Assembly (NCBI GenBank): GCA_025330725.1
Contig: JAIWND010000006.1
Span: forward strand, 1,054,001 to 1,118,000
Source of the DNA: Chlamydoabsidia padenii
Taxonomy: Eukaryota; Mucoromycota; Mucoromycetes; Mucorales; Cunninghamellaceae
Direction of reading: 5' to 3'
DNA length: 64,000 nucleotides
The translations under genes and the position numbers were made by a program. Under the pieces are notes generated by a model that made no database searches, was not told the DNA's origin, and saw only the letters and a list, made by a program, of their open reading frames with translations. This document shows, one piece after another, positions 5,125 to 63,583 of the stretch (within the stretch, counting starts at the first letter, position 1; the number at the start of each line of letters is the position of its first letter).

Positions 5125-8100
5125 AGTGAAAGCACTCTATTAGAAAACAATATACCATTCTATTAGATATACCATAAAACCACATGTAGCTATAGTTGTA
5201 TTAAACTTTATTTTAGGATATTGTCATTTACAAATAAAATCCACAAGACAGATAGTTATGGAGTATATTTTCATTGGATTCATTGTTTTTAAAAGACAGA
5301 GCATTCAAAAGAATGTTCAATATGGAGCGAGTCAGAGTAGATTGGTGTCTTGTATTAAGAATATAATAACCCTAATCATCAGAGCAATCAGCTTTGCTCA
5401 TCATCCCAATTAGATAACTTTGTACTGAAGAAAAGACCGCGATCATTCTCGAGGTTGTCGGAAATCAGACGTCAAGATAATTGAACCAATCAAAACGCTT
5501 CCCTTACTCTTTATGTTATCATGCGCACTGTCCTATACTACTTTCCTAGCCAGAGGGTTACTTTATTGTCATGAAAACAACTAGACTGTTAGTGATTACT
5601 CTTTCCGCATCTATAGAAACTTGAACCAAAACAAATGGATGACCGTGATCCTTTTTGCCCTCATCATTCTTCTTTTTTTTTTTTTCTTGAGAAATAGGTG
5701 AAATGGGAGGATAGTAAATCGGGAATTGAAGCCTGTCATTTTTTACATTAATAAATCATTGTAGTAGTGATGGATAGAGTAATAATGATTATTGAACTAG
5801 AAAGAAAATTCCAGAAAGCAATAGTAATAGGAGATGGCAGTATGAGGTCATAACTGCATAATGTTAAAGGAAGGAGTAGGACAGTATGATCGAACGATAA
5901 AAGTTTTGTTGTTATTGTTTTACTTATCTGTCATGATAATTTAGTCGACCTGATTTGTTCACACCGCCCCCATCCAGTTTCCTTCAAAGTGACAAGAATG
6001 AAAGTTCATGCATGCGGTGTTTGAAACTGACGAAACCGTTCCCCCTTTTCTTTCTTTCTTTCTTTCTTTAATATTGCTGAATAAACAGAAATTGAGTAAG
6101 TATAGTGTCATCAATAAACGGAGATTGGTATACTCATAATCCAAGCTTGACTTGATCTCCCGAGAAAAGCGTTTATGCAGATAGCGATACCGGGATTTGA
6201 AATTATACTGGACGAAATGTATCAGCACCTAATGGTCTTTACTTTTTTTCTATGTTAAAAAAATATATAGATTTATAAGATATTCCCATTTTACGGGGGG
6301 GAGTGAACTGTAATATATTGCATGTCACAGTAGTCGTCAGAAACACTTGCGTGCACCGTCTGTTGTTTTCAATGTTCCTTTTTGGTCAAGAGATAACACA
6401 ATGAATACATAATGATATCAACTTGACTAAAATAGTACATTGGTTTGAATGGTAGTATTGATCAGGCAACAAGAGTATTTCGTTTAAACTTATTGTCTAC
6501 TCGATGGAAAAGTCAAGGCAGGTGTCGGGATTTGAAACCAAAGCCAATGGAACGAGATTTTTTTCGTTTGAAGCATTTCCGCCTCTTCCTTCTTTATTCT
6601 ACTCGCATACTGGAATGCTTTACTTTATTGATTGACACCTCTTCTTTACTTAGTTATAACACACGCATATGGACGATTGCTAATCCTTATTGAATCGTAC
6701 ACTGTTTTACACTAACCTTTGACCAAAGGTAAGAAAGATAGCTGTTTCTTCGCTAAATGGTTAACCACCTTTTTTATTATGTAGATGCCACTCAAAAAGT
6801 ATACTAAAGCTAATATACTCAAGGATAGCCACGACAAGACCAACACGAATCCCTCTTTGCACTAGTGACCATAGCATCCCGGTTGTCTCTTCCTCATTGA
6901 AGGTAAAGTATTTATGATTTAGCTTGGCAAAAAAACAAAAAACAAAAAAAAAACCAATGACTCATCACTGAACAATACTTTTTCTCTATTCAATAAGGTC
7001 AAATACTCTTGTCTGGGTCATACAACTCTGGTGACTTCTCCTCAAGCGGCTGCGTTGTAAAATACAGTATGGTAAGAAAACAAAAAAAAAAGTCGGTGAA
7101 TGATGATATGACAGTCTAATCAATGGTTGTTTTTGTAGCGACCCAGTTTTTCTCCTTTGTTAGCATCGCTGACCTTGTGTTTGAAGTATTGGGTCAGATC
7201 TTCTCTACCTAGTTAAAAGAATAGTGGATGCAGTATGGCTCGGTCTGTCAAAGGTATATACTTGGTTGGAGATGTGCAACGTAAAATGGCTATTCTTCGT
7301 TTGGTGGGGAATCAAATAAAAAACATAGTAGGTTATACTTGTTTAGTGTTTATCACTTTGGTATTTGCTGATGTCAATATCAAAATGGTTTATCAAGGTG
7401 CCTCCGAAATCGATGTCTCTTCTGTGTCATTGAAGAATCTTATACTGCTGCGAATAATATCTACGATTGCAATGCTCAGCAAACGCAGTAATCTGATATT
7501 ATCTGGCTCTTAGAATAGTTTTTGTTTACTAGCTTTTGTATTTAACTTTACTTGTAATATAATAAACATGATTAAAATCTGTCCAAAGTGTAATTCATGC
7601 ATTTAGACGAAACTCCGACAAAGTCCCTTTTTGGATTACTGGTGTGATATGTGTTTTAATACTGTAGTTTTTACATGAATTGGGATATCTTTCTAAAACT
7701 TTGAAGCATGGACGTAATTAGTGCTATTCAAAATCTTACCTTAATATGATATGAATTGTAAAGCCTCTGGAACAATGGTACCATGGGCACTTTTGTCATG
7801 GCTTCAAGTCCTTTCGTCGAACTGATCATGTGTGATTAAGCATTGAAGTAAAGAAGTATTAGACAAGTCAATCGTGCTATCAGCATCGATTTCTTCAAGA
7901 AGATCGGAATTTTTCTATTTTAAGAAAAGGGGGGAAAAGAATAATGGTCCGAACATGATCTCTTTGCGTTTGTGTTTTTCAAAGTCCGAAAATTCATCTT
8001 GTCTTTCTTTCTTAACATTATTGGTCTCTCCCTTACAATGAATAAACGGTTGACAGCAAATAACAGGGTCTGTATGTACTGCAGGTAAGTTTGAAACAAG

Positions 8101-8140
8101 AAAATTCACATTTGTAGTTGATGAATGTCAAACTGAACTA
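5125..8140. other. Long intergenic stretch, no supported gene
   Basis: Only short frames are present. Two exact copies of the CGGGATTTGAA word occur at 6191-6201 and 6526-6536. An open frame at 7235-7513 (begins MARSVKGIYLVGDV) has ordinary composition but no recognised domain and no convincing splice partners, so it is not called as a gene. Confidence 0.45.
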
Positions 8141-11054: not shown

Positions 11055-12283
11055 CTACAACTTGGATTCCAAAGCAGCCTTTCTACGACGAGCCACTGTC
11101 AAAGCAGCACCTGCCCTTGAGTTTGTTTCCCGGCCCAATTTTTCCGAGATCCAATTACCAACATCGATAAGTTGATCCAGGTCCACATTAGTTTTGAATC
11201 CGAGTCCATTCAGCATATAAATCACATCTTCCGTCGCAACATTGCCTTTAGCACCAGGAGCATAAGGACACCCACCTAAAATAGAAATAGCCAAGTCAGT
11301 CCATCCGTTTATTCCCCTCCTCTCTCTCTTTATTACCTAAACCAGCGACAGAACTGTCGACCACCCGAATACCATATTCCAAAGCCTTTAGAATATTTGC
11401 CAAGGCTTGACCATAGGTATCATGACAATGCACAGCCAAAGCTTCAGCAGGGACAACCTTGAGTACTTCTTCCAACATGCGAGCAGTAGATCCAGGCGTA
11501 CCCACACCGATGGTATCACCAAGACTGATTTCATAACATCCAGCTTCATATAACCGTTTCGCCATATCGGCCACCTTGACTGGATCGACAGGACCTTCGT
11601 AAGGACAACCTAGGACGCAAGAGACATAGCCACGTACACGGATGTTTTGAGCCAAGGCATGCTGGGCCACCTCGGTCAAACGTCGGATGGCTTCTTCTGT
11701 TGAGCAGTTGGTGTTTTTCTGGTTGAATGATTCGGTCACAGCAGTAAACATCGCTACTTCCTTGGCACCGGCTTCGATCGCTCCATCTAGACCACGGCGG
11801 TTGGGAGTCAGCACAGGGTAACAGACGTTAGGTTTCTTGTTGATGGAGGTAAAGACTTGTTTGTTATCGCCCATCTATTGGAAAAGAGAGAGAGAGTGTA
11901 ATGCATAAAGTTTAATAATAACTCTTTCTTTTTCTTCTTCTTCTTCTTTACCTGAGGAACCCACTTGGGGCTGACAAAGCTAGTGACTTCAACCACAGGA
12001 AGACCGGCATTGGCAAGACGTTCAATCAGTTCAATCTTGGTTTCGGCTGGAATCAATTGCTTTTCGTTTTGAAGACCATCACGAGGTCCCACTTCCACAA
12101 TCTTCACAAAGTTGTTTTGGACAGGAGTGGATAACATACGGCTCTAGTTTTATAAAATATAAAAAAGGCGTGAGTCATACTTCAATTTATACACCTGTTA
12201 AAGAATAGTGGTCGTACCTGATTAGTAATGAATGGGCGGTAGGATTGACCTAAGCGTTTGGTCACTGATGTTAACGAGCGCAT
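11055..12283 (-). CDS. HMGCL: Hydroxymethylglutaryl-CoA lyase, with PTS1 tail
   Basis: Cleaves 3-hydroxy-3-methylglutaryl-CoA to acetoacetate and acetyl-CoA, the last step of leucine breakdown. Exons on the minus strand: 12283-12218, 12143-11952, 11874-11337, 11275-11055; 1017 nt, 338 aa, close to the usual size. Visible family motifs: [11 protein letters not shown] (catalytic Arg43 and Asp44), [36 protein letters not shown], the metal-binding HCHDTYGQA and the active-site loop [14 protein letters not shown]. Exon 1 encodes only a basic, Ser/Thr-rich presequence ([18 protein letters not shown]) typical of mitochondrial import, and the protein ends in SKL, a type-1 peroxisomal signal. A second Met (residue 25) right after the first splice could start a form without the presequence. 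Divergent from RPB10. Confidence 0.96.
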
Positions 12284-12681
12284 TGTGGGAATAATGTAAG
12301 TGTATATATCTAAAAGGAAGAAAAGCAGCAAATAAAAAAAAGTGAGGGGAAATAGATTGAAATGCGGGATTTTAAAATTGAGATTCCCACGGGTGAGGAC
12401 GGCAGACTGGATTTTATCGGGTCAAAGTTGGGTAATGCACAATAGTATTGAAGATTATTATCATCATCATCATCATTATTATTATTATTATTATCATCAT
12501 CATCTCCTCCTCCTCACAGTAATGACTAATTCTTTTATCTCAAATGAATGGATGGATCAATGCCTGTCGACTCTGGCGGGATTCTAAATCAGTAAGCGCG
12601 TGACAGGGTTTTGATAAAAAATAAAACTCTTCAACAACCGCCTTCTTTCTTTCACATCTCTATTCTTTTTTTAAATCAATA
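12284..12681. promoter_or_regulatory. Bidirectional HMGCL/RPB10 promoter region
   Basis: 398 bp between divergent start codons. It holds CGGGATTTTAA at 12366-12376 (one mismatch from the recurrent window motif, 83 bp from the HMGCL start) and GGCGGGATTCTAAA at 12575-12588 (about 95 bp before the RPB10 start), plus imperfect ATT/ATC triplet repeats near 12450-12505. Confidence 0.5.
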
Positions 12682-13121: not shown

Positions 13122-13342
13122 GGAACCTGTGTTCCTGCTATCATCATATCCCCCGTCCTTATTCATACTTCTACTCTTCCTTGTTGTCGTCTACAATAGA
13201 CGTTCAACCTACCACTAGTTTATCACACATGTCCTTCACATCAATAGCATTCTTTATCAAATAAATTTGTATACATTAAAAACTTTATTATTGTCTTCAT
13301 TGTGTTGTGGACTGGGTGTGTAATAAACAAGAGGGAGGGGGT

Positions 13343-14104
13343 TTAACTTCTAGGGCCACCAAAGATACATGTAAAGCAATACCATAATGATCCAAACAGC
13401 AGACCAACCATTGCGCCAAGATGCATCCAAATACAATCACCTAGATTACCATAAGAGTACCTATTGGCTTCCCTTGCCGCATTGGTCCCTCGGAGACTAA
13501 TCACCAGGACGATGACAAAGGTTACCAACATGACAATAAAACCCAGGAACGTCGCTAACGACGCAAAGAAATCAACACCTCTTCCAAAATGTGAAAGAAT
13601 CGTCACCGCCAAAGCACCTATAGTGATGCCAAATGCTATCCAGTATAATATAAAGTTCGCCAAGTATACCTTGTCCATTCCTACCAATCCTGTTGTATAA
13701 TATCGAATATCGGGTGCTGAAGCTAAAAAAAAAAAAAAAAAAAAGCCGGGATTTGAAAAATCGGGTAAAGGGGTTCAATAGGTAAGAGGATCAAACATGG
13801 ATCAAAAAAGGCTACTTACACCATATGAATGCCGCCGTTGGTTTACTACAGCTTGTTACCCCAGCCTTGATGGTTCCTTCACAGTATCCCCTACGAATAT
13901 ATATATAAAAGAAGATGAGAACAGATGATGATCTATAGAAAACGTCAGATACCATAGACCGAGATTCAAAAAACTATCATCAAGTGTAAATTGAACAAAG
14001 TAAAGAGATTTTAAAAAGGGTTTATCGTAGGTTGAGGCCAAGAGAATAAAGATTTCAAGCACCAACGCACCAAAGGTGAAAAACGTGGCCAAGTAAGCAA
14101 ACAT
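13343..14104 (-). CDS. Sur7/PalI-like four-TM claudin-fold membrane protein
   Basis: Exons on the minus strand: 14104-13953, 13890-13820, 13722-13343; 603 nt, 200 aa. One N-terminal membrane segment is followed by an extracellular loop carrying GLWGYCEG and a further Cys in GVTSCSKP, then three more membrane segments. The GLWxxC-type loop motif is the signature of the Sur7/PalI (claudin-like) family, which in fungi organises plasma-membrane domains or senses pH. The splice that creates GLWGYC supports the model. The start is the first in-frame ATG of exon 2; an upstream exon (ATG near 14330) probably exists, because a strong acceptor with a 23-T tract sits just 5' of this ATG, so a longer N-terminus is possible. 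Exact role unknown. Confidence 0.75.
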
Positions 14105-14414
14105 GGGTTGGGCTTTTGTAGAGAAAGGAAGATAAAAAAAAAAAAAAAAAAAAAAAGAAGAACAACAAACATGGCTTTGTATCATATAAATAGTTTGACG
14201 GACGTTTCCCACTAGAAAACTTTAAAATACAAAGATGTGTGTCCGCGTGACAATATTTAGCGGAGGAATACAATGGTACCTATGATAGGACCACACCTGA
14301 TGATGAGAAACAAACCGATGTGTGCCATTGTTATCGGGTGTGCCATAAAAGGGTATCGATCTGGTAGGGGGTCAGCCTATGATATATTTCAAATGCCGCT
14401 TTCATGCACATTTT

Positions 14415-14425
14415 TTCAAATCCCG
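14415..14425 (+). promoter_or_regulatory. Recurrent 11-mer TTCAAATCCCG upstream of the Sur7-like gene
   Basis: Exact copy, 85 bp 5' of the alternative start near 14330 and about 310 bp from the start used here. See the finding on the motif. Confidence 0.55.
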
Positions 14426-16039: not shown

Positions 16040-16111
16040 CTGGAAGGAAGAAGGGAAGAGGGGGAAAAACAAAAAATTCACCTTTTTCATTTTTTTTAAC
16101 CCAGCGAGGAT

Positions 16112-16122
16112 CGGGATTTGAA
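16112..16122 (-). promoter_or_regulatory. Recurrent 11-mer upstream of the pseudouridine synthase
   Basis: Exact copy (CGGGATTTGAA on the plus strand, forward relative to the gene), 73 bp before the start codon. Confidence 0.6.
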
Positions 16123-19686: not shown

Positions 19687-19908
19687 ATCAGGTGTAAAGA
19701 AGGTGTATTGGAAAAAGATAGAACCGCGCCCTCTCTCTCTCTTTTTTTTTTTTTTTTAATATCTTGGTCGTGACTTGAGAACTCATTGGGCAATCCAAAA
19801 TACGTTTTCAAATCCCGCCTTCTGGTCTGCATTGGCTAATTTTTAGCACACACACCTTTTTTTTTTTTTTTTTTTTTTTCTATTCATTCTTTTCTCTCTT
19901 TCTCCAAA
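19687..19908. promoter_or_regulatory. Compact bidirectional CUL4/Rho promoter
   Basis: Only 222 bp separate the two divergent start codons. The single recurrent element TTCAAATCCCGC (19807-19818) lies about 120 bp from the CUL4 start and 91 bp from the Rho start. T-runs flank it on both sides (about 19742-19757 and 19859-19879). Confidence 0.55.
19807..19818 (+). promoter_or_regulatory. Recurrent motif TTCAAATCCCGC between CUL4 and Rho
   Basis: Exact copy in the centre of the 222-bp divergent promoter. Confidence 0.6.
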
Positions 19909-23632: not shown

Positions 23633-24639
23633 CAATAACAATAAAAAATAAACACAAAAGTCAAGTTGGAGTTTTTGTGGTATGGAAGGGGGGGATGACG
23701 GTGGTAGGGGAAGGTGACAAATGAATGATAGAGTTAGTGGAAAGATACACAAAGGTATGATTAGGATAGGTGGAGTGAGTAAAAAAAGGACGAATCAGAA
23801 GGGTATCGAATAAAACAAACGAAGGAAAGAGCCTGTCAATTCAAATAAAACCGGCGCGACCTAAAAGGGGAGAAAAAAACAAGTGGGAAAAAAAAGTGAT
23901 GTCACATACATTTTGGAACATTCAACCCCCGATACAAAGAGCCACCTGTCAAAACAATGTTTCTCCAGGTGCCATGTATCTACTATACACCAAGAAACGA
24001 ACATGTACCTTTATTTTTCAAATGAGTCTTGTTTTTATTATTATTACTGGCAATGACATGGATAGTTGATTTACAATGACTAGTGTCTTTACCAGGCTCC
24101 GTTTAACCTCGTGAAAGGGCCTGTCTGCCTTTTGTTTTTTGTTGTCACCTGTTTAATTCAAATCCCGCATTCGTGTCACTCTTTATAGATGATCCGGCTT
24201 TCATTCCTAAAAGTAATAATGAATATAACAAGCTATATTCAAAAACATTGAATAGGCAATAATTTGATTTTATATAGGTGAGGTATGAATCCGAAAATTC
24301 GAGGCAAAGGTTTAGGTGAAGTGAGGGTATTTGAATTCGCGGTAGTTGATAGAATGAGAGGCCCAGTGTTACTGGAATAATATTAAAAATGAAATCTATT
24401 CTTTCTACTTGCTTGTAGTGGTTTATGTTGGCAATTTTGATATGTATATCTCAAGATAAGGTGGATAGACTTTAATGTTGCACGTTAAAATGTAGTGCCT
24501 GAACTGCATGTCACATGGACTTCATATCCCGCTCTCGGGCAAACCCAATAATTAATGTCGATTTTTCTCATTTCCTATTTTTTGACTCTTCTTCCACTAT
24601 TCCAACCATAATTAGAGGGCTTCTCCTCATTTGTCACAA
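23633..24639. promoter_or_regulatory. Divergent PPR/RapGAP intergenic region
   Basis: About 1 kb without coding evidence. It holds one exact recurrent motif TTCAAATCCCG (24157-24167) and a one-mismatch copy TTCATATCCCGC (24521-24532), the latter 108 bp before the RapGAP start. Confidence 0.45.
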
Positions 24640-27672: not shown

Positions 27673-28995
27673 ACAGCACAGTCTTCGATTCATCAAGGTA
27701 TTATAAAAGAATCAGGATGCATGAATGGTTACACTATCGGGGTTTTAATTATGTTTGTCTATAATGCAGGACGCGAAGCAAAAGCAGTGGAATCAACACA
27801 CATCTCTAATACCACCTCTGAAACTCATTCTACATCGACCATGTCATCTCATACAAATAAACAGACAGCAGACAACAGGTAATACGAAGGATGGGGAAAA
27901 GATTGTTCTATTTTGATACTGACAACACCTTACTTTATAGACCGACCTCCACAATCATGACAAGCTGACATTCCTGGTATCCTATTTATCTATTTACTCT
28001 TTTATTATTATTATCATTATATCTCTTTATTACTATTTATCTTATCTGTTATGTATTTGTATGCGTGTGTGTATGTGTGGCCCTACCTAGTATAATAGCA
28101 TTCTCTTTAATTCATATTGATTAAATAAACCCCATATCTCTCTTCCATATTGTGATTATGACTAAAAATAAATAACCTATAAAGTACTCATGCTCTTTTG
28201 CTCGCAAAATGATCGGCTCAAGTGTCGGAGGGATGGTGAAATTATTTGTTATTGCGATATCACACGCACAGACTAAAAAAAGAAAGAAAAAATCTGACTC
28301 TCTCCAAAGGCATGAACATATTTCCATTTATTGACATTCTTCTTGTTGTTGTTGTAAAAGATTGATGCAATTGAAAAACATCAACAAAAGAATGATGTGA
28401 AATCAATTGTAAGGGGAAAAAGAAACCATGTCTCTTGAATTGATTTTGCCCTTCTTCTATATCCCCTTATGAAAATGCACTTTCCCCCCTCTTTGTTGCA
28501 TCATTTGCTCCCCCCCCCTAATATGAATATGTATGAGTATGCTTTTTTTTTTCATCCTTAGATGATAGAGTAAGTATGTGTTTCATTACAAGGAGTAGAA
28601 GAAATGCTTACCATTTCGGTTTGTCAACTAGATCGATTCTATCGTATATCGGTACCTTTTCGATGCATTCATTCATTCATTCTCAAAGGGTTAATTTCAA
28701 ATCCCGACGAGGCCATAGCGGGGTTGGTTTCCCGCCAAATAATTTCCCCTCCCCCTTTAATTGAGGGTCCTCTCCCATTTTTCTTTTTCACCTCTTTCTT
28801 TCCTTTTTCTTTTCCTTTTTTTTTTCCATTGCCTTCTTTTTTATACTTCCTTTGTCTATTATTGTATTATAACAAACCAAACCACTTTTAATAGACTTTA
28901 TTTTACCTTACGATACTGTAACACCCATTCAACTTTTTTTTTTGTACCATTGCATTTTTAAACCTCTTTTACTCGCTCTATTGATACTGACGACA
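27673..28995. other. Intergenic region, possible extra RapGAP exons at the left end
   Basis: 27.67-27.97 kb may hold two more short exons of the RapGAP gene (splice-like GTATTA/GCAG near 27700-27770 and GTAATA/ATAG near 27880-27940). The rest is AT-rich, with an exact recurrent motif at 28696-28706 and a T/C-rich promoter stretch before the next gene. Confidence 0.4.
28696..28706 (+). promoter_or_regulatory. Recurrent 11-mer upstream of the integrase-finger gene
   Basis: Exact copy, 290 bp before the start codon; a 5' UTR of unknown length intervenes. Confidence 0.45.
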
Positions 28996-32663: not shown

Positions 32664-33530
32664 GTCCAAAAAGAGTGGAGGGGTATATTCTTTTTAAAGG
32701 TGAAAGAAAAGAAGAGAGTTGGAAAAATAACTTTTTTTCAGCCCAGCCCTTTTAATGCTGCCGAATTTAAACGCCGATGTGGCACCCTGCTCAGACTAAA
32801 CTTTATTCGATTGAATATCCATTGTGACAGCGTACCATACCGCAGCGTGTCAGGGTTACATTCCTGTATTGAATCCCATCGGGTGGCACCCCTCACTGCG
32901 GAAACATGATCGTAAGAAACTTCTTTTTGGTTATGATGGCTAGTACCTGATCCATGTAGGCACTTTTCAAAAAAAAAGGGGGGTTAAATATTTAAACCCA
33001 GCCATAGTGAGCGAGTGAGACAACGATGGAAATGGCACTGATTGTTTTACTTCCCAGTTTCCCTCTCCGTGTCGTATTACGTTAGGAATCATTATTGTCG
33101 GGCATGAACACAATCTTGCTTTACTAATATCATACTCTCTGCCCTTAAAGGGAGAACCTTGACGAAGATTTTTGATTCGCACTCGTAGTTCATTGACCGA
33201 GGTATACTCTTCTCAACCAGGAACGGCTCGTCAAGACCGATTTGGTTTCATCGTTTTCTGGGGTAGAATACGGGTCCATCACATGATAGGAACGCCGCTA
33301 GTTTTTTTTTATTGTGCACCTCCCTTCTTGGTTTTATCAGATCTAATTGACCAATTAGATACATGGGTTTGTCTAGCACCCTGAGAGCGGCGTTTGAAAA
33401 GGATTTTTTCCCCTTCTTTATTTACTTTTTTTATTTTCCCATTCCCCTTCTTCTCTCTTCCCATTCATTTAACTATTTATTGGCACAGATTGTTTAAAAC
33501 TATACACCACAATCTTTATTCCATTATAAT
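32664..33530. promoter_or_regulatory. Divergent BCS1/GATA-factor intergenic region
   Basis: 867 bp without coding evidence. T- and C-rich tracts precede the GATA-factor start. No exact recurrent motif was found here. Confidence 0.4.
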
Positions 33531-38437: not shown

Positions 38438-38450
38438 TTCAAGTCCCGCC
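38438..38450 (+). promoter_or_regulatory. Motif variant TTCAAGTCCCGCC upstream of the family gene (copy 1)
   Basis: One mismatch, 95 bp upstream of the start at 38343. The corresponding site in copy 2 (44854-44865, TTCAAATCCTGC) lies at the same distance, although the DNA between motif and start has diverged. Confidence 0.5.
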
Positions 38451-39500: not shown

Positions 39501-39989
39501 TCAGTACCAGGGCCATCTTGATGAATGAGTTGATCCAAGAAGAAACAGTTACACTACCACCACCTTTATTTTCGTACCTATTACTTCTTTTGTTTCTTTA
39601 CCTTTGTTATATTGATCCAGTCCAAAGAGTTTCAATAGAGAGTCGGCCATCATCAGTTAAACGCCGCCCATTACCACAGAGACAGTTGCCAGTTGTGAAG
39701 AAGACCAGTGGGGGGAGGATCCTAGTTGAGGGTTCGTTCGTTATTAGAATTCGCACGATTGGTTGACTTGATTGAAACCAGCAGGGTTTCTAAACCATTG
39801 TCAGTGGTGCAGTAGTCATAACGTCGCATGTTGAAGAGTGATTAAGAGGGAGTGGAAAAAAAAAAAAAGGGAACTGGTAAATAAAGCAATTCAAATCCCG
39901 CAATTGGCGCTATCATAATGGGGTCACTCTATCTCTCTTTCTCTTACGTATTTTTTTTTTCCCTTCAATTCAACTTTTAAACACAATAT

Positions 39990-42920: not shown

Positions 42921-42964
<44 letters not shown>

Positions 42965-44759: not shown

Positions 44760-45839
44760 TGAAGTAAGTGATATAAAAGGTTATGTTTTTTTTATGATAG
44801 AACAAAGAAAAGAAGAGCGAAATACCCTCTCGCCCTATCATAAAATATAAAAATTCAAATCCTGCATCCTGACTGTTCAGGGTAGCTTGATTTTTTCGTC
44901 GAATAAGCGGATAATGAAATATCTCCTCCAAGAATTGACCGACAAGTTTATTCATATGATGTGAAAAAATATAACAGACTTATATAGGACAAGCAGAACA
45001 GGAATGTGGTCAACGATATCATTGGCCATCTCGCTCGCATTAATTAAATGACGCCTATAGGAAGCCACTCGGGCTAAAGTTTCATTCACTGACCACATTT
45101 CTGTTATCGTTTACGGATGAGTGCTTCCGAAAAATCAAAAAAGTTACACCCGACAGATGAAAGCGGAATTTCAAAAAAGGGGAAACGGGATGAAGGCAGT
45201 AAAAGTGGGTGTATGCTGATTGATCTTAGTTCTATATCACCGCCTTCTCTCCTTTTGGTCATTAGACATTAGCTTACTACACAAGGCATGATTTTTGTTT
45301 GTTTTACCTTTCATCAATACAAATACCAGGTCATGCAACTGACAACAAAACATTTTTTGAATGATGTCTTTTGACTTTATTTTATATATGGAAATACGTT
45401 TTTTAGTCTTATGTAATGTTGGCGGGTGAGTCTTTTTACTTTATACTGCAGATCATTATGATACCATCTCTTCTTCCTCCAGCTTGTTGACGTGAAATCC
45501 AATCACTCTTCTAATTCATTCACCGACATTCATGCCGGAGCGTAAATTTAATTGGGTGGGAGCTTTCCCTCATCTTTGAACGCTTTACTTTTCATTAGGG
45601 AAAAGAACAGTAAGACAATTTAGAATATATAAAGTTCAATGTAAACATCCATAGCTTTTGAATAATCTGTTTCGTTGAAAGGAATACATTTCCTTGAATC
45701 TAAAAAGACCATTAGAATGTGGTACCTTTTCAAAAAAGGTAAGCTATACATTTATTTTTAAATCCCGAACAAGTCAAATTCTTTTTTACCGAGAGCGCGG
45801 GAATCCTTTTATCTTCTCTTCTTCCCCCACACACACATT
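44760..45839. promoter_or_regulatory. Intergenic region upstream of the LTA4H-like gene
   Basis: About 1.1 kb with no coding evidence. Contains TTCAAATCCTG (44854-44864, 95 bp upstream of the decayed family gene) and TTTAAATCCCG (45757-45767, 73 bp before the LTA4H-like start). Confidence 0.45.
45757..45767 (+). promoter_or_regulatory. Motif variant TTTAAATCCCG upstream of the LTA4H-like gene
   Basis: One mismatch, ends 73 bp before the start codon. Confidence 0.5.
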
Positions 45840-47118: not shown

Positions 47119-47171
<53 letters not shown>

Positions 47172-50599: not shown

Positions 50600-50610
50600 C
50601 GGGATTTGAA
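50600..50610 (-). promoter_or_regulatory. Recurrent 11-mer upstream of NSA2
   Basis: Exact copy on the opposite strand, 149 bp before the ATG-only exon. Confidence 0.55.
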
Positions 50611-50758
50611 TTTAAAGGGTTTTCTTCATTTCTCATTTTAATTGGTCCTCATGTGGCTTATTTTTGTCGCAACCCATTTTTATCTTCCTCTTTTTTTTTT
50701 TTTTTTTTTTTCTAGTTTCTCCTCCTCTTCCTTCCTTTATTTTACCCTTTATCTGAAG

Positions 50759-51758
50759 ATGGTAAGATCTCTACCTTGATAAGCAGAACACTCATATAAA
50801 TGTTTAGTTACATCTTGTAACTATATTCTGGAACTTTGTACTAACACTCCTTCTTTTGTCTTTTTATTGATTTTAGCCCCAAAACGAGCATATTGAAGAA
50901 CACATCAAGCGACATGGTCGTCGTTTCGATCACGAAGAACGAAAGTAAGTATCTTGATGCAGTTAAAGAAGTCTAGGAAAAGATCAAACATACTAATCAT
51001 ATTTTCTCTCCTTTTTTTTTTTTTATTATATGAACGATCTATAAAGGCGTAAACGGGAAGCACGTATGGCACACAAGAACTCTCAATTTGCTCAAAAGGT
51101 ACATGGTCTCCGTGCTAAACTTCACAACAAGAAACGACATGCAGAAAAGATTCAAATGAAGAAGACGATCAAGCAACATGAAGAAAAGAATGCCAAGCAG
51201 AAATCGGCGGATGCTATCCCTGAAGGTGCGGTACCTACCTACTTGTTGGATCGTGAAGGTGAAGATCGTGCCAAGGTCTTGTCAAACATGGTCAAGCAAA
51301 AACGCAAGGAAAAGGCTGGTAAATGGGCGGTACCTCTCCCTGCGGTGCGTGGGATGGCTGAAGACGAAATGTTCAAGGTGGTCAAGTCTGGTAAAAACAA
51401 GACCAAGTCCTGGAAACGTATGGTCACTAAAGCTACCTTTGTCGGTGATGGCTTCACTCGTAAACCTCCAAAGTATGAACGCTTTGTTCGTCCTATGGGT
51501 CTCCGATTCAAGAAGGCTCATGTCACTCACCCTGAACTCAAGGCTACCTTCCAACTACCCATCATTGGTGTCAAGAAGAATCCTCAATCGCCTCTTTATA
51601 CACAACTCGGTGTCATCACTAAAGGTACCGTGCTCGAAGTCAATGTGTCTGAACTTGGTTTGGTCACAACTGGTGGTAAGGTCGTCTGGGGTAAATATGC
51701 TCAAGTAACAAACAATCCCGAAAATGATGGTTGTATCAATGCCGTCCTCTTGGTCTAG
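50759..51758 (+). CDS. NSA2: Ribosome biogenesis protein NSA2 (TINP1)
   Basis: Nucleolar factor of the pre-60S particle, needed for 27S pre-rRNA processing. Exons 50759-50761 (the ATG alone), 50877-50944 and 51047-51758; 783 nt, 260 aa, nearly the yeast length. After the splice the protein reads [17 protein letters not shown], then basic [65 protein letters not shown] and the highly conserved [18 protein letters not shown] and [20 protein letters not shown]. The end GCINAVLLV is the family ending. The start codon is an exon by itself; the GTAAGA donor follows the ATG directly. An exact CGGGATTTGAA is 149 bp upstream. Confidence 0.97.
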
Positions 51759-52272: not shown

Positions 52273-55062
52273 TTACTGTTGTGATTGTTTTCGATGTTGT
52301 TGTCTAGGTGTTTTGCTGGCACAAGTCGATGATGATGATGATATTGAAAAAGGATCCAGTCCATAAGTGACAAACCGTTTCGCCAACACCGGATCCAACA
52401 ACAAGGTTTCAGTCTTCTTGATTTCCAGTACCCAGGCATTGACGCGATTTGATTTATTCTGCACCAAAAGATCCAACACCAAAGTATACCATTTCGTCGG
52501 TGCTATTGTCCATCCGAGATCTTGACAGGCCACTGCCATCGCTGCCTTTGCCTTGACCAACCGTCCTTTCCGAGCCCAAGCAGCCACCAATTGTTCATAT
52601 ACCGCGATCGGCGGTCGCCAGCCCCGAGATCGCATGTGGTCAAAGATGTGTTGTGCCATATATGTATGATGATTCTTGGTCAATTGATCCAATAAAAGCT
52701 TGTAAGTCATCCCGTCCGCCAAGATAGGTTCGTCCGGTGAAGCAGTTGGAAAGAGATGAAGACGTTTGTTGGATAAAAACACTTTGGCCGCTTCCATAGC
52801 ATTATCGCCCAAGTCACCATTATTGTTGTCGTTGCCATAAAGTAAAATCCTCGTCAGTTTGAGATTGTTCAACCAGATATGATCATGATGTGTTGCTTGA
52901 GGATCATTCATCAGAGTCGTAAACATTTCATCTTCCATCTCCCCGTCTTCTTGATACACATCCAGTAAAGTCCGTAGAGTAGTCGCATTCGATTGTACAC
53001 CCACCAAAGCCATGTGTCGTAAAATATCCAGGATTCGATTCGCCACCGGTTCTTCGCCCCCTTGTTTCCGGAACTCGACTTGTTCTTGTCCAACAATACG
53101 CATCAAGAGATTAAAGTCCACCACGTCCACCACATCTGATTGCTCCACTTCTTCTGGTCTATCGCCACCATCATGATCGTGATCTTGATCTGCTGTTATA
53201 GAAGATGGGGTAAGTGCTTGTGGTTGTTGTTGTTGTTGATGAGCCAAATGATCGAATACCGCCTTTGCTGAAGTAAGTTCCCCCTTTTTAACATAAGTCG
53301 CCATCAACGAGGTCAAAGAGTGATGAGGCAGGTTAGGAAAACCGACCTGGCGTTGTAAAGTCACCACTGATTGGAAGAGATCCGCATCACCTGTTTGAGC
53401 ACAAAGAGAATACACAAGATGGAAGAGCCGTTTGGTATGTTCAGCTTGACCATCAGATACCAAGAGACGAGTTGCTTGAGAGAGGACATCTTGATAAACG
53501 ACAAGAGCATGGTCATATTGTTTGGTTCGAATCAGAGATTGGAGAATATGGGTATAAGCACGAAGTTCCAGAGAAGAGGGATAATGTGTGGTGAAACGTT
53601 GATAAAGACGATACATATCCACGTGGTATTTGGACTTGGCAGCAGTAAGTAAAATCGATCGTGTTTTATTCTTGTCGTATACAATTTGAGCCATGGTACT
53701 GGTGTTGTCGAGTGCTGGTAATGAATCCAAATGAAAGTAGAGGTCAAAGGCATATCGTAACCTGTTTTTCGTCAAGTAGTAGGCTCCCAGTCGATTGGCC
53801 ATCACTTTAATTCCCTTTTCGTGCCCAAATTCCAATGCGTCTTCCAGCAGTTGACGAAGAGTCGATGATTGATTTGTTGCTATACATCGATCCACCAGCC
53901 TGATTAAACCCACTGCCGATTGTTGTTGTTGTGTTGATGATAGTTCCTTCTTGTTGTTGTATAGCCCACATTGTTGTCGATAAAACTGTCGAGCATCATA
54001 ATACCGATCATTACAAGCTGCTTGTTGTATCAACTTTTCCAATCCATAACTAACCACGCCCACCGCATATTGATACGGATCGCCTGCCGATGCTGTTTTC
54101 CAAAAATCTAATACTTGTGCCATTTTTTCATTCTTTGATAGATCAGTGTGTGTGGTTAACCAAGATGATGCTGTTAACAAATCCCCTTGAGCCAAGTATC
54201 CTTGCATCATATACCCCACCATCAGATCGGATGTTGCTGTGTTGTTGTTGGTCGCCGCCAATGTCTTGACTTGATTCCAGTACTGTAGAGCCAAAACCAT
54301 AGGTGATTGATCTTTTATACTTTGATGTCCACATGTTGTTAGAGTCGCAATTAGATATTCGTACGCCTGTAAAGAAGGAGTTGCTAATGGTGAGGTTGTT
54401 GTGACCCAGTCTATCAGATCGACAGCTGCTTCGGCTCTATTGTGGGTTTTATAGGTGGACAGGAGAGCCTCGACGTGGACCATGCTGAATTGATTTGGTG
54501 TATATTTCTGGATATCTTCTAATACATGTTGAGCATTAATGATGAGCAAGTTTAAAGCAGGTTCGTTCAAAGAAGGTCGCAAAGCTTTATATAACGCCAT
54601 GAGTTGATGACTATCGATTTGATTCCACACCAATGGATCGTGGCGAATGGATTCGTATAATGTTGATAGCTTTTTTCTGTGGTTTCGTCGTCGAATGGTG
54701 TGTGTTGTAGAAGACGATGAAGAGCCAGGTGAAGACGGAGATCGTGACAGCAAAGAGATCAATTTTTCCACCCGTGAATCCTTTGGTGTGGCCATAATAT
54801 GTACGTGTCGCTGCTGAGGTAATGGTGAAGATCCAAGTGTTGATAACCGTTGGCGTTGTTGTAGAGGACTCCATCGGTATTGAATCCCAGTGGTGCAACC
54901 AATCGTAGAGTCTGCGACAAGAAGGGTTGGTGTGGTGTGTTGTAAATGGAGAGGACGCCTGCCTAGTAAACAAGTACGACAAACCAGTTGTGTGGATTTA
55001 ATCCGATAATGCCATGATCGTAGTTGTACTCCTTGTTGTTGGAGTAGCAATGGAAAAGACAT
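52273..55062 (-). CDS. Large PPR-repeat protein, mitochondrial
   Basis: Single-exon gene. The open frame extends 5' to 55236, but the Met at 55062 gives MSFPLLLQQQGVQLRSWHYR, a typical basic mitochondrial presequence, so I use it: 929 aa. Repeats are degenerate helical hairpins, for example AYTHILQSLIRTKQYDHAL, LTSLMATYVKKGELTSA and TYKLLLDQLTKNHHTYMAQ, closer to each end of the protein than in the middle. A Gln-rich plus Asp/Glu-rich linker separates two repeat blocks. Expected role is binding of mitochondrial RNA. It shares the general plan of the 21.2-23.6 kb PPR gene but I see no close similarity, so this is probably not a tandem copy. Confidence 0.82.
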   Translation of the reverse strand: MSFPLLLQQQGVQLRSWHYRIKSTQLVCRTCLLGRRPLHLQHTTPTLLVADSTIGCTTGIQYRWSPLQQRQRLSTLGSSPLPQQRHVHIMATPKDSRVEKLISLLSRSPSSPGSSSSSTTHTIRRRNHRKKLSTLYESIRHDPLVWNQIDSHQLMALYKALRPSLNEPALNLLIINAQHVLEDIQKYTPNQFSMVHVEALLSTYKTHNRAEAAVDLIDWVTTTSPLATPSLQAYEYLIATLTTCGHQSIKDQSPMVLALQYWNQVKTLAATNNNTATSDLMVGYMMQGYLAQGDLLTASSWLTTHTDLSKNEKMAQVLDFWKTASAGDPYQYAVGVVSYGLEKLIQQAACNDRYYDARQFYRQQCGLYNNKKELSSTQQQQSAVGLIRLVDRCIATNQSSTLRQLLEDALEFGHEKGIKVMANRLGAYYLTKNRLRYAFDLYFHLDSLPALDNTSTMAQIVYDKNKTRSILLTAAKSKYHVDMYRLYQRFTTHYPSSLELRAYTHILQSLIRTKQYDHALVVYQDVLSQATRLLVSDGQAEHTKRLFHLVYSLCAQTGDADLFQSVVTLQRQVGFPNLPHHSLTSLMATYVKKGELTSAKAVFDHLAHQQQQQPQALTPSSITADQDHDHDGGDRPEEVEQSDVVDVVDFNLLMRIVGQEQVEFRKQGGEEPVANRILDILRHMALVGVQSNATTLRTLLDVYQEDGEMEDEMFTTLMNDPQATHHDHIWLNNLKLTRILLYGNDNNNGDLGDNAMEAAKVFLSNKRLHLFPTASPDEPILADGMTYKLLLDQLTKNHHTYMAQHIFDHMRSRGWRPPIAVYEQLVAAWARKGRLVKAKAAMAVACQDLGWTIAPTKWYTLVLDLLVQNKSNRVNAWVLEIKKTETLLLDPVLAKRFVTYGLDPFSISSSSSTCASKTPRQQHRKQSQQ

Positions 55063-55632
55063 GTAATAGGAGTCGTGAATTAGAAGTGGAGAAGTAAAGA
55101 AGAAAGAAAAGAGACTTTTTTTATTTTTCTTTTTTTCTTTGTTTGTTTTGATTTTCCCAACCAACCGCCCAGCCCAGCCTGGCAGCCTGCGAGCACACAA
55201 ATTTTTTTGAAGCGGCATTTGAAATGCCCACATCAAATTTTAAAGTGAACTCTAAAAAAGGGGGGATGGGGATAAAGGAACGATCTCAAATCGCTTTTCG
55301 TTGTTAGTATAAGTAAACGTGGGCACGGACAATCATGAACCATAAAACCTGTTCATAAAGTCTCCCTATTTGAATTTTTCAAATTATCTATCCAAAAATC
55401 CAAATCAAGAAAGAGAGGAGAGAGACATGCCCTTGCATACATAATGTTCAGCATATTAAACCATGTCTGTTAACATGGGGAACCCGGAAAGAAGACTCCG
55501 AGGGAAAAGGGGTAAAAACCATAATGAGATAAAAGACATGTTTTATTTATTTAAAAAGAATAACTATATACCTATACATTCTATACAAGCTATAAACAAT
55601 ATAAAATGATCCATTCTAACTATTAATTTTCC
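55063..55632. other. Intergenic region between PPR and TMEM115-like genes
   Basis: 570 bp, no coding evidence. GCGGCATTTGAAATGCC near 55212-55228 is a weak, partly palindromic relative of the recurrent motif. Confidence 0.4.
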
Positions 55633-60275: not shown

Positions 60276-60302
60276 TAAAGTATCATGCAAAATTCAAATC
60301 CC

Positions 60303-60337
<35 letters not shown>

Positions 60338-62717
60338 ATGTGTATGTCTTCGGGAGTGATACATGTATACAAATATGTGCACATATGTCATTAATAAAGA
60401 ACACAACCTAAATTATACTGTTTTATTCATTTTCTGGGTCAGTGTTTGTAACATGATCGTTATCTAAAGCGGGCAGGATCAGTGTTGAACTTTAAGAGTA
60501 TGTGTCAAAACAAGTACATACCTACTTTGAACCATCGTCCCACATACAATTATACTTTTTTTAAGGTTCGTGGGGGAGGAGTACATGGTTTAGTCAGTCT
60601 ATCATTATATTAAAGTTTGAGTTTTTGTGATACATTCATCCCGTCGTTTGAGCCTTTCCATGTTCACCTTTGTTTGTATCATTGGTGCTTCATCAATCAC
60701 AACAATGAAATCAAATAGATATGCACAAGAGTAAAGTATAACATAACAAAACAAAACAAGTTTATTTATTAGAAGTTATATGTTATATGTAAGGGGATAA
60801 TAAGGGAAAAATGGGGGGGGAGAGAGAGTAAATACTATCTAAACTAATGTATATCACCAGTTGGGGGGAGGAAAAAAAAAAAGAGGAGAAGAGACCATAC
60901 GGAGCAAGTCCACCCTAGAGTCAGTTGATACTTATTCGAATCATACCTAAACGCCAATACATTAAGAGAGAATATAAATAAATCAGTGTGATCATCCATC
61001 TTCATTTTGTGATAATAGATATATACACCATTGCGAATCAGACTATTCCTTTTTACTTTTTTCCCGCTTCGTCTTACCTTTTCAACTCGGAGTATCCGAT
61101 AGAGGCAATGTTTCAAGTATGGATGTGTTATTTTTAGATTGTTGGATGCAAAAGGTACATCGGCCAAAAAGGTGGTGATCGGTGAAAGGTATTAGGTAAG
61201 GTGATGGTGATGATGATAATATCGAATAATACATGTTGACCTGGTGATAAGATTAATTGCGTATATGTATGTGTGTTTTGGAGATGCCGATGTCGATGTG
61301 GATTAAGAGAAGGACCCTGTTGTCACCTGGGTATCTCGTCCAGTCCAATGTCACACAGATATGCGTGCGAATAAATGTACCATGTATCCCTTGACCCATG
61401 TTTATCTTCCAATATTGATAAAGAGGATTTGCAGGCAATAATCGGCAGATGGTGAATCACGACGTTTTAGAGGATTTCTAAAATAAAATAAAAAGAGAGA
61501 GAGAGGGTTCTTTGTCAGTATTGATCGATTAATACCTTCCTTACCTAACCAAAAATACGGTTTATCCAGACTTCACAGTGAGTACATCCAATAGATCACT
61601 AGATATTATAAAAATTAAAGCACTAATAGGATTATCATTCTGATATTCTTAAATGTACCTATGTGCAGCTTGCCGTCTTATCAAAGGGACTAGGTGAGTA
61701 TATGCCAGTTTCCCTATCAGCAAAGTAGTCTTCTGTATGGGTTTTGTACAAAGTCTTGTTTGAGAAGAGGCAGTTTCCCCCCCCCATGAATGGATCTTCT
61801 ATACATACATAAAAACAATAAAATCAATGTCATTATTCTACTCCCATCAATTCATTATTACCTTTGTTGGTTGTGCGTTGTTGTCAATCAAAACCAATGT
61901 GTGAAGTGGTTAGTCATAGCTAGTTTGTCACGTCCAGGTCCACCACATTATACACAAACCCCATGTGAGTAATTCCCTTTTCTTGTTTTTATCTCCTTAC
62001 CATTATATACAACAACCAAAGATATACCCAGCAGTATTCGTATTCCTATGTTTAAACAATTGATTAAATCCATCATTACTGGAACTGGATATCCGTTCTT
62101 TAAGTTTACCTGATTCACCCTGAGATGAGGGACATTAGGCAGCCGATTATTTGATAAGGATTGATCGTTAGTGAAAGCGTTTTACTAAAAGAGAGAGAAA
62201 GAATTAGTATTAAGTAATAGATTGTATTAATTGGGCTTACCAAAAGCATGCATTCGAAAAAAAAAAACCCCCCCCTTTATATTTGTTCAAGATGGTGAAA
62301 GCGAAATGTGAGTAATTATATTGTTTCGACTTGTAGCTGTTGACAAAGGGGAGAGAGATCCATGGTTGATGTTGGATAAAAATAAAGTGAAAGAAGTGAA
62401 GGGAAGAGGGGAGAAAGGGAAAAAAAAAAGAAATCAAGCACTCACCATATTCAAATCCCGCCTCAGCGATAATGGGTTGGCAAAATGTATGGTAAGTCCT
62501 GACGCCATTTTTTCAAAAGCCATGATGTAAACGAGCTTGAAACAGTATGTAATGACACCTGATTATCATATGAGTCTTTTTGTTAATGACTGACTTGGTT
62601 TTTTCTTGAACAAATTATGACGAAAAAAGTCGGGATTTGTAAAACGTTTATGCATCGGGTACCCAATTTATATTTTATTGCTACGATAGAGTAAACATGA
62701 GTACGAAGGGAAACAGT
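60276..62717. other. Unresolved region, possible intron-rich minus-strand gene(s)
   Basis: No complete gene could be built. Protein-like stretches on the minus strand include SNNLKITHPYLKHCLYRIL (about 61.1 kb, ending at a GTAAGA donor), NPLKRRDSPSADYCLQILF (about 61.45 kb, with a strong T-rich acceptor and a stop soon after), GKLAYTHLVPLIRRQAAH spliced to SDLLDVLTVKSG (about 61.57-61.77 kb) and, in another frame of the same stretch, YKTHTEDYFADRETGIYS. Which frame is used cannot be told. Exact recurrent motifs at 60293-60303 and 62450-62460 flank the region. A 33-bp T-run lies at about 60303-60335. Confidence 0.3.
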
Positions 62718-63583
62718 TTAAATGTCATCAGGCAAAAGAGGGGATTCTACATGGTAGTGAGAACAAAGAACTTTGACAGAGTCATAAATTTCCTCCAATT
62801 CCTCTTTGGTAGCCCCATTGATTTTCGCTCCCAAAATATGTTGTCTCAAAAGAGGAGTCAATCGTAAGGAATAACAACCGGCCACCAAAATGAAACTCGT
62901 TTCCTTGGCAGAAGTAAAAGTCAAATCTGATAGCAAGTAAGCGTACATAAAATTCTCTATCGACGAACCCAAATCGGGATAGATTTTATCATAGTGGTGT
63001 CTCATCTTGTCCGAACTGCTGCCATAAAGAAGGTCAAAGAACTTTCTTCCTCGTTCGCGCTGAGCAAGTATATCTTGCCAAGTGCCATCTTCACGGATAG
63101 GTTTTTTGGAAAGCATGTCTTTGACTACCTTAGGTATAGTGCTATCTATTGCATTTATGCCTATAATTACCTATTGATATCATGAGTGAGAGAGATTAGT
63201 TCTCATCAAGTGGCGGGATTTGAACCTTTTGCCTTACTTTGGGTGCACCGTAAGGGATCATTCCTTTAAACAAAGTATCTCGCTGCTTTGCTACCACATC
63301 AGCCTTGAGCATTAACTTTTTTTCTGGTGTTAAATCATCCATAGCTTCAATATCTTGATCAATATGTTTCCACAAGTGGGTAAAGTCTTCTGCATGATTC
63401 AAACCACTCATGACAAGCGGCTATTCAAAAAAAAAAAAGTGCATGAATTTACAGGGTCTGATCATTTCATAAATGGTAACTTACTGTGAGGTAGACCCAT
63501 TTATTCATCAAGTAATTCTTACTGGTCGCTTGATCAACCTTGTAGATAGAGCGGGTTTTCTTCAAAGCGTCAACTATAGACAT
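62718..63583 (-). CDS. Carboxymuconolactone-decarboxylase/AhpD-family protein
   Basis: Three exons on the minus strand, 63583-63485, 63420-63238, 63170-62718; 735 nt, 244 aa. The first exon (MSIVDALKKTRSIYKVD...NKWVYLT) is short. CMD-like signatures are in the C-terminal third: ENFMYAYLLSDLTFTSAKET, SFILVAGCYSLRLTPLLRQH, HILGAKINGATKEELEEI and DSVKVLCSHYHVESP. The middle part is a charged helical region. The CxxC redox pair of bacterial AhpD is absent, so a peroxidase-reductase role is unlikely; fungal CMD-fold proteins of this type are poorly characterised. The intron between exons 2 and 3 contains an exact CGGGATTTGAA (63214-63224). Confidence 0.82.

What the first reader, a model, noticed from the sequence alone, without database searches (positions are those of the whole stretch)
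6191..63224. An 11-base word, TTCAAATCCCG, recurs 14 times and marks promoters across the window
Seen directly: exact copies (either strand) start at 6191, 6526, 13747, 14415, 16112, 19807, 24157, 28696, 39890, 48899, 50600, 60293, 62450 and 63214. One-mismatch copies include 12366, 24521, 30501, 31338 (inside the BCS1 coding region), 38438, 44854, 45757, 48326 and 62631. Random expectation for an exact 11-mer on both strands of 64 kb is about 0.03. Flanks outside the core (often A/T before, C or A after) are not conserved, so these are not copies of a repeat. Several lie 70-150 bp upstream of start codons (pseudouridine synthase, CUL4/Rho, PEX16, NSA2; with variants also HMGCL, RapGAP, LTA4H-like, family gene). 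I know no described fungal element with this consensus. It overlaps the look of a tRNA B-box but lacks the preceding GG. Binding factor unknown; inference: a core promoter or general regulatory site.
Basis: partly seen in the sequence, partly recalled or inferred. Interest (0 to 1): 0.88.

Follow-up and report, generated by a model that had tools for sequence, protein, structure and literature searches.

The report
Near-universal promoter element in a mould
A short DNA word sits in front of most of the genes examined in a bread-mould relative, most often about 100 letters before the predicted start and in either orientation, which suggests that one unidentified protein marks most promoters of this fungus.

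Summary
Confirmed and extended. TTCAAATCCCG occurs 14 times in the window (shuffle mean 0.09) and 3,811 times in the 34.2-Mb genome, against 2 backwards. A protein match and the contig length point to Chlamydoabsidia padenii, Mucorales. The real element is looser, WWTTYAAAWNCCGMY: TTYAAA, 2 bp, CCG (11,456 genome-wide, control 326), by extrapolation about one per gene. In 314 kb with my own gene models, 45 of 84 genes have a site 60-150 bp before the predicted ATG (3.9 expected), 63 of 84 at 60-300 bp (10.7 expected); a position-blind matrix and held-out contigs agree. Both orientations are about equally frequent. Five divergent pairs 171-222 bp apart share one central site; three pairs 438-450 bp apart have one each. 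Carriers are functionally unrelated. Tests speak against tRNA B-box, E2F, CHR/LIN54 and Reb1 sites. Best reading: binding site of an unidentified general regulatory factor that opens most promoters, upstream of a pyrimidine-rich presumed initiation zone. Factor, nucleosomes, TSSs and related species were not testable; only 3 of the window's 14 exact copies lie within 150 bp of a predicted start.

The parts
6191..6201 (-). exact word
   Evidence: no predicted start within 500 bp
6526..6536 (-). exact word
   Evidence: no predicted start within 500 bp
12365..12375 (-). variant TTAAAATCCCG, 87 bp upstream of predicted ATG of gene 11055-12283 (-)
13747..13757 (-). exact word; in a predicted intron of model 13297-14104 (-), possibly a mis-modelled first exon (reader: PEX16 promoter; not tested)
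14388..14398 (+). variant TTCAAATGCCG beside the exact copy at 14415
14415..14425 (+). exact word, 316 bp upstream of predicted gene 13297-14104 (-)
16112..16122 (-). exact word, 27 bp from the predicted ATG of the pseudouridine synthase gene 14491-16090 (-)
19807..19817 (+). exact word between a divergent pair: about 125 bp from the cullin-type gene (16290-19686, -) and about 97 bp from the Ras-family GTPase gene (19909-20850, +)
   Evidence: the cullin match is below Pfam's cut-off
24157..24167 (+). exact word, 477 bp upstream of predicted gene 24640-27672 (+)
24521..24531 (+). variant TTCATATCCCG, 113 bp upstream of predicted ATG of gene 24640-27672 (+)
28696..28706 (+). exact word, 294 bp upstream of predicted gene 28996-30248 (+)
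32766..32776 (+). loose site TTTAAACGCCG, 108 bp upstream of predicted ATG of gene 30627-32663 (-)
33388..33398 (-). loose site TTCAAACGCCG, 137 bp upstream of predicted ATG of gene 33531-35681 (+)
38438..38448 (+). variant TTCAAGTCCCG, 100 bp upstream of predicted ATG of gene 36317-38343 (-)
39890..39900 (+). exact word, 242 bp upstream of predicted gene 38594-39653 (-)
44854..44864 (+). variant TTCAAATCCTG, 100 bp upstream of predicted ATG of gene 41847-44759 (-)
45757..45767 (+). variant TTTAAATCCCG, 77 bp upstream of predicted ATG of gene 45840-48236 (+; weak peptidase M1 match, below Pfam's cut-off)
50600..50610 (-). exact word in a predicted intron of model 48988-51758
55213..55223 (-). 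variant TTCAAATGCCG, 156 bp upstream of predicted ATG of gene 52273-55062 (-; its database relatives carry PPR domains)
60293..60303 (+). exact word next to a 32-bp T run; no predicted start within 500 bp
62450..62460 (+). exact word (22.7 bits, equal best in the window); no predicted start within 500 bp
63214..63224 (-). exact word, the only one of the window's 14 preceded by GG; in a predicted intron

Best explanation
The word is the strongest form of a near-universal promoter element of this Mucorales fungus, WWTTYAAAWNCCGMY (TTYAAA and CCG held 2 bp apart). Shown by computation: it is hugely over-represented, lies mostly in intergenic DNA, peaks 60-140 bp before predicted start codons, occurs in both orientations, numbers about one per gene by extrapolation, and is shared or doubled by divergent genes according to their distance. 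Inferred: one abundant sequence-specific protein, or a small family, binds it as a single rigid unit and acts like a yeast general regulatory factor, keeping a nucleosome-free gap open so that the transcription machinery can enter; initiation then takes place in the pyrimidine-rich tract that begins about 40-50 bp downstream of the site. Because the element has no fixed direction, the direction of transcription must come from other sequence, plausibly the pyrimidine tract. The identity of the protein is unknown.
For: Genome-wide: 3,811 exact against 2 backwards; TTBAAAHCCCG 8,469 against 82; TTYAAANNCCG 11,456 against 326, while a 3-bp spacer gives 1,627 against 389; in 96 kb of intergenic DNA spacers of 1, 2, 3, 4 bp give 0, 105, 6, 0. 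Its pieces are the most over-represented words in non-coding DNA of 314 kb after simple repeats. Position: with a matrix built from 82 non-repeat copies without regard to position, 34 of 84 genes have a site within 150 bp and 50 of 84 within 300 bp upstream (6.4 and 12.1 on 200 rotations, maxima 12 and 21); 33 site-gene pairs lie -140..-61 and 1 lies -60..+159. Held-out tests: a matrix trained on contig 1 places 13 of 30 genes of contig 56 at 60-150 bp (1.5 expected, maximum 7), the reverse 18 of 54 (2.7, maximum 7). Genes found by homology elsewhere: 3 of 5 Ras-family genes with a readable start have a site at -71 to -96, and 2 of 4 histone genes at -131 and -148. Divergent pairs under 600 bp: 10 of 11 have a site; five pairs 171-222 bp apart share a single central site, three pairs 438-450 bp apart have two, each 85-114 bp from its own gene. 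Orientation 21 against 23, 16 of 32. A/T runs of 10 or more within 50 bp of 32.5% of 80 sites against 13.6% of random intergenic points. Pyrimidine tract downstream. Unrelated gene classes.
Against: No transcript, TSS, nucleosome or binding data; gene models are my own ab initio ones and start codons are unverified. In the window only 3 of 14 exact copies lie within 150 bp of a predicted start, 3 are in predicted introns and 4 have no predicted start within 500 bp. Sites also occur in predicted convergent intergenic DNA (12 in 19.8 kb), coding exons (17 in 173 kb) and introns (21 in 45 kb). 35 of 84 genes have no site of 11 bits or more within 300 bp, and two Ras paralogues have none within 250 bp. 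Of the 11 divergent pairs, one (340 bp) has no site and two (236 and 306 bp) have a single off-centre one (82/154, 74/232). Best sites in -150..-60 lean 24 to 14 towards one orientation, not clearly different from even. The A/T-run enrichment is partly expected for any promoter position. Conservation in other species could not be tested.
Confidence: 0.75

Rival explanations
1. Site of a pathway-specific or growth-regulated transcription factor (ribosome biogenesis or cell-cycle type) with a very large regulon, rather than a general promoter factor.
For: Some carriers look like growth genes: Ribosomal_S8e-domain (NSA2-type), pseudouridine synthase, CSN8/PSMD8/EIF3K family; 35 of 84 genes have no strong site within 300 bp.
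Against: About one site per gene by extrapolation and carriers of unrelated function: PIGA, Ric8, syntaxin-18-type, VPS53, copper transporter, mitochondrial carrier, calponin-homology protein, Ras-family GTPase; 45 of 84 models have it at 60-150 bp.
Confidence: 0.1
2. Directional core promoter element, for example a TBP/TFIIB (TATA plus BRE-like) site, with TTYAAA as the A/T half.
For: Tight distance from the ATG and an A/T half next to a CCG half; TATAWA itself is in at most 7 of 49 site-bearing promoters per 50-bp bin.
Against: Both orientations are about equally frequent and one site can serve both genes of a divergent pair.
Confidence: 0.06
3. The word was spread by a transposable or tandem repeat (the ~240-bp family that carries it) and is a relic, not a functional promoter element.
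For: 16 of 98 degenerate and 4 of 45 exact copies in 314 kb lie in that family, which has 605 first-look candidates genome-wide, 40 of them scored.
Against: 82 of 98 copies lie outside the family; a relic would not sit at a fixed distance from start codons nor keep only an 11-bp core.
Confidence: 0.03
4. A DREAM-like hybrid of an E2F half (CGGG) and a CHR/LIN54 half (TTTGAA), as described for worm, fly, human and Tetrahymena.
For: The reverse complement GGCGGGATTTGAA has the order E2F-like half, then TTTGAA, that PMC3093354 describes in words for its motif 1 (passages; the worm letters themselves are recalled) and PMC8216455 reports for Tetrahymena (passages); six E2F/DP domain hits.
Against: E2F consensus TTTSSCGC (recalled) is not enriched (8 against 7 backwards) and the CHR alternative TTCGAA (recalled) is rare in this setting (TTCGAATCCCG 2 against TTCAAATCCCG 35); no LIN54 CXC or LIN9 DIRP match (none with a positive control); a PMC7225089 passage reports no LIN9 homologue in fungi; far more sites than cell-cycle targets would need (inference).
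Confidence: 0.03
5. B-box-only TFIIIC sites (ETC type, chromosome-organising).
For: TTCAAATCC equals a tRNA T-loop/B-box half (recalled); of the 17 papers holding the word or its complement, several are tRNA papers by title (listing only).
Against: 1 of 45 exact copies has the preceding GG; GGTTCRAATCC occurs 94 times genome-wide (control 19); the position equivalent to the key C56 (recalled) is the most variable one (T14, G10, A4 of 88 one-mismatch copies); no tRNA in the window, one in the 25 other stretches.
Confidence: 0.02

Closest known systems
Yeast general regulatory factor sites (Reb1, Abf1, Rap1, Tbf1, Cbf1, Rsc3; class features recalled, PMC9481977 and PMC2897762 seen as search listings only)
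   Same: Short strong site at a preferred distance upstream of many unrelated genes, in both orientations, near A/T runs, shared in divergent promoters.
   Different: Different sequence (Reb1 core TTACCCG 4 against 13 backwards); one element seems to serve about half to three quarters of the genes examined instead of several factors sharing the job; factor unknown.
Metazoan housekeeping promoter elements (for example Drosophila DRE and motif 1, human ZNF143/THAP11 sites; all recalled)
   Same: Position-restricted housekeeping promoter word with long footprint.
   Different: Different sequence and lineage; no homologous factor was sought or identified.
DREAM/DRM E2F-LIN54 hybrid motif (PMC3093354, PMC8216455 passages)
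   Same: Similar order of a CGGG half and a TTTGAA half.
   Different: Halves closer together, E2F and CHR preferences not met, LIN54/LIN9 not found, abundance far higher.
tRNA B-box / TFIIIC extra sites (recalled)
   Same: Shares TTCAAATCC.
   Different: No GG, extends into CCG, wrong variable position, not at tRNA genes in the stretches scanned.

Membership tests
TFIIIC B-box / ETC sites | GG directly before TTCRA | tested here: not met
   1 of 45 exact copies in 314 kb; A/T preferred at -2 and -1
TFIIIC B-box / ETC sites | C of TTC nearly invariant (recalled) | tested here: not met
   Position 3 is the most variable, 28 of 88 one-mismatch copies
E2F/DP sites | TTTSSCGC (recalled) enriched in intergenic DNA | tested here: not met
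   8 against 7 backwards in 96 kb intergenic
CHR / LIN54 sites | TTCGAA about as good as TTTGAA (recalled) | tested here: not met
   TTCGAATCCCG 2 against TTCAAATCCCG 35
DREAM/MuvB complex | LIN54 CXC and LIN9 DIRP proteins encoded | tested here: inconclusive
   No matches but no positive control; LIN9 reported absent in fungi (PMC7225089 passage)
Reb1 sites | TTACCCG core (recalled) | tested here: not met
   4 against 13 backwards; position 7 is T in 64 of 82 copies
General-regulatory-factor-type promoter elements (class) | Position-restricted sites in both orientations at many unrelated promoters | tested here: met
   genes
General-regulatory-factor-type promoter elements (class) | Bound by a factor that creates a nucleosome-depleted region | not testable with these tools
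   No chromatin or binding data available
TATA-type core promoter | Fixed orientation relative to transcription | tested here: not met
   21 opposite, 23 same
Dispersed repeat family | Homologous flanks between copies | tested here: not met
   82 of 98 copies lie outside the repeat family

The most novel reading that the evidence does not exclude
Mucorales promoters run on a one-element grammar: a single lineage-specific factor marks nearly every RNA polymerase II promoter at a set distance, in place of the mix of TATA boxes and several general regulatory factors known in yeasts, and its loss or turnover would re-wire the whole genome's chromatin.
Probability: 0.3. Interest if true: 0.87.

Novelty: new member of a known kind. 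Interest (0 to 1): 0.74.

Why it matters
I found no description of such an element: none of the papers listed reports it as far as titles, abstract starts and the few passages I read show; most of these lists were capped (for instance 20 of 2,183 papers, 15 of 465), the library holds open-licence papers only, and the exact-word search (17 papers, all listed) was seen as a listing. A site present about once per gene would give a handle on three things: where promoters and true start codons lie in Mucorales genomes, which protein organises their chromatin, and how minimal promoters could be laid out for laboratory strains. It also bears on the open question of how the dominant promoter factor changes between fungal lineages.

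Tried and rejected
tRNA/B-box, E2F, CHR-LIN54, Reb1, TATA and repeat-relic readings were each examined and set aside. Rfam gave no match at gathering thresholds in the window or in eight of the 25 other 10-kb stretches. A first gene-finder run over-predicted introns and was discarded; the second was used throughout: 106 models, 84 of at least 150 aa with closed ends, 83 in the EM step because one lacked flank. The EM matrix was trained on the -180..-50 region of the same genes, so its positional counts are partly circular; the position-blind matrix and held-out contigs are the clean tests. EM on block-shuffled promoters reached likelihoods about as high as the real ones by fitting T runs, so neither that likelihood nor the fitted fraction of promoters is used as evidence. 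Words enriched in promoters without a site were weak. The word TGCATGA/TCATGCA is no commoner beside the element: 4 of 49 site-bearing against 4 of 35 other promoters. The fold of the 240-bp repeat showed no convincing conserved RNA structure.

Species: named from one protein hit (92% identity over 66% of the query, hypothetical protein of Chlamydoabsidia padenii) whose contig length, 1,318,596, equals that of the window's contig.
Full report
What was checked. In the whole 34.2-Mb genome the word occurs 1,909 + 1,902 times, and its backwards control once on each strand. This is a genome-wide signal.

Where it is. The protein at window 52276-55062 (-) matches a hypothetical protein of Chlamydoabsidia padenii on a contig of exactly the same length as the window's contig, with three Absidia species next at 53-60% identity.

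Material. 250 kb more of the same genome were fetched, giving two contiguous blocks of 200 and 114 kb that include the window. A hidden-Markov gene finder written for this purpose learned a plausible gene structure from long reading frames (GTAAGT donor, TAG acceptor, 72-bp median intron, 4.9 introns per gene) and gave 106 models. Largest-exon pieces of 28 models were scanned against Pfam: the 26 models that have a degenerate copy within 300 bp upstream, and two others; 17 of 28 have a family at E of 0.001 or better, 13 of them above Pfam's cut-off. The other models were not scanned.

The true element. Of 88 one-mismatch copies in 314 kb, 28 differ at position 3, 22 at position 7, 11 at position 8 and 27 elsewhere. 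A matrix from 82 copies outside repeats gives A/T at -2 and -1, C/A at +1 and C/T at +2. Expectation-maximisation on promoters loosens it to WWTTYAAAWNCCGMY. The two halves TTYAAA and CCG keep a 2-bp distance: 105 intergenic sites against 0 at 1 bp, 6 at 3 bp and 0 at 4 bp; genome-wide 11,456 at 2 bp (control 326) against 1,627 at 3 bp (control 389), some of the latter, such as TTTAAAATCCCG, containing the 2-bp form TTAAAATCCCG. So it looks like one rigid footprint. With 106 models in 314 kb, extrapolated to about 11,500 genes, 11,456 sites are about one per gene; this count includes copies in repeats and in coding DNA.

Where it lies. Degenerate copies have a density of 0.04 per kb in coding exons, 0.24 in introns, 0.86 in divergent, 1.01 in tandem and 0.50 in convergent intergenic DNA. 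Of 80 intergenic ones, 14 lie 60-140 bp upstream of a predicted ATG against 5.2 expected (none of 300 simulations as many). With the position-blind matrix, 34 of 84 genes have a site within 150 bp upstream and 50 of 84 within 300 bp, against 6.4 and 12.1 on rotation (maxima 12 and 21 of 200); the profile peaks from -140 to -61 with 33 site-gene pairs and then drops, with one pair between -60 and +159. Training on one contig and testing on the other repeats this: 13 of 30 and 18 of 54 genes at 60-150 bp, against 1.5 and 2.7. With the EM matrix 45, 63 and 69 of 84 genes have a site at 60-150, 60-300 and 60-500 bp (3.9, 10.7, 17.9 expected), somewhat optimistic because the matrix was trained there.

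In the window itself. Of the 14 exact copies, 3 lie within 150 bp of a predicted start, 4 at 242-477 bp, 3 in predicted introns and 4 have none within 500 bp; many window genes have instead a one-mismatch or looser site at 77-156 bp (gene starts near 12283, 24640, 32663, 33531, 38343, 44759, 45840, 55062). Some of the misfits may be wrong models.

Genes chosen without regard to the motif. Ten stretches upstream of Ras-family first-exon matches were fetched; five show an in-frame ATG and three of these have a site at -71, -83 and -96; two paralogues have none nearer than -287; the other five have no in-frame ATG in the stretch and were not counted. Of two divergent histone promoters (named H2A and H2B by me from Pfam histone matches and N-terminal sequence), one has two sites (-131 and -148 from the two starts), the other one at -174 from H2B. 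That is 5 of 9 genes with a site at 60-150 bp, close to the main set.

Grammar. Orientation is even: 16 of 32, 21 against 23; among EM best sites at -150..-60 it is 24 against 14. Of 11 divergent pairs less than 600 bp apart, 10 have a site. Five pairs 171-222 bp apart share a single central site (distances 99/92, 90/81, 72/104, 113/93, 125/97); pairs of 236 and 306 bp have a single off-centre one (82/154, 74/232); a pair of 340 bp has none; three pairs 438-450 bp apart have two sites, each 85-114 bp from its own start. Composition downstream shows a pyrimidine-rich, G-poor tract just before the ATG, beginning about 40-50 bp downstream of the site, as expected for a fungal initiation zone (recalled). 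Runs of A or T are about twice as frequent within 50 bp of the site as at random intergenic points.

What it serves. Pfam names among carriers include PIGA, Ric8, syntaxin-18, VPS53, DUF3712, the CSN8/PSMD8/EIF3K family, copper transporter, mitochondrial carrier, calponin homology, pseudouridine synthase, Ras and Ribosomal_S8e, and below the cut-off cullin, peptidase M1, Pyr_redox_2 and LRR_9, besides histone genes: no common pathway is apparent. Non-carriers were not compared.

What it is not. B-box: no GG, wrong variable position, and GGTTCRAATCC numbers only 94. E2F and Reb1 consensus sites (recalled) are not enriched. A LIN54-type reading is tempting because the reverse complement reads GGCGGGATTTGAA, much like the worm DRM hybrid motif discussed in PMC3093354 (passages) and the Tetrahymena one of PMC8216455 (passages); but the alternative CHR form is rare, LIN54 and LIN9 were not found (no positive control), and PMC7225089 states that fungi lack LIN9 (passage). 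Reported 6mA motifs of Mucor and Phycomyces differ (PMC11258239 passages). A dispersed 240-bp repeat family carries the word but holds only 16 of 98 copies.

Mechanism proposed. A protein recognises the 11-13-bp site on either strand and holds open a gap in the nucleosomes; the polymerase starts in the pyrimidine tract below. Shown: sequence, abundance, position relative to predicted starts, spacing rule, both orientations, mixed gene spectrum. Inferred: a single factor, nucleosome exclusion, and that the pyrimidine tract is the start zone. The CCG half might suggest a zinc-cluster protein, but that is only a guess from recalled preferences; no candidate protein was examined.

Limits. Starts are predicted, not mapped; no transcript or chromatin data; no second species. 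Sites in convergent, intronic and coding DNA, and genes without a site, remain unexplained and may reflect wrong models or real exceptions.

Noticed in passing
window 2955-3171 (-); weak copy 48362-48495 (-); L015, L017, L019, L021, L023, L030, L032, L038, L039: A dispersed family of ~240-bp units, singly, in dimers or in arrays of up to four, in intergenic DNA; 76 match rows from 40 scored of 605 first-look candidates genome-wide. Most units carry the promoter word near one end and a conserved GATGCTAATGATTAAAGTGG-like block; no Rfam match in the stretches scanned, no convincing conserved fold. Nature unknown.
   Followed up: partly
314 kb including the window: Second-rank over-represented non-coding words TTCATGCA/TGCATGAA and CCACTTTAAT; the latter and GATGCTAATGA are part of the 240-bp repeat unit. 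TGCATGA/TCATGCA shows no preference for site-bearing promoters (4 of 49 against 4 of 35).
   Followed up: partly
G000 C7:409295, C56:775491, C19:83438, C67:231154, C1:2062540, C8:577276 (L009-L014): Six E2F/DP-domain matches in this Mucorales genome, a family absent from budding yeast (recalled).
   Followed up: no
L050 and L051: Two divergent histone gene pairs (C3 and C31) with very similar coding starts differ in the number of promoter elements, one against two.
   Followed up: no
window 25865-25881 and 31335-31351: Strong sites (18.9 and 18.6 bits) inside predicted coding exons, possibly cryptic or antisense promoters or wrong models.
   Followed up: no
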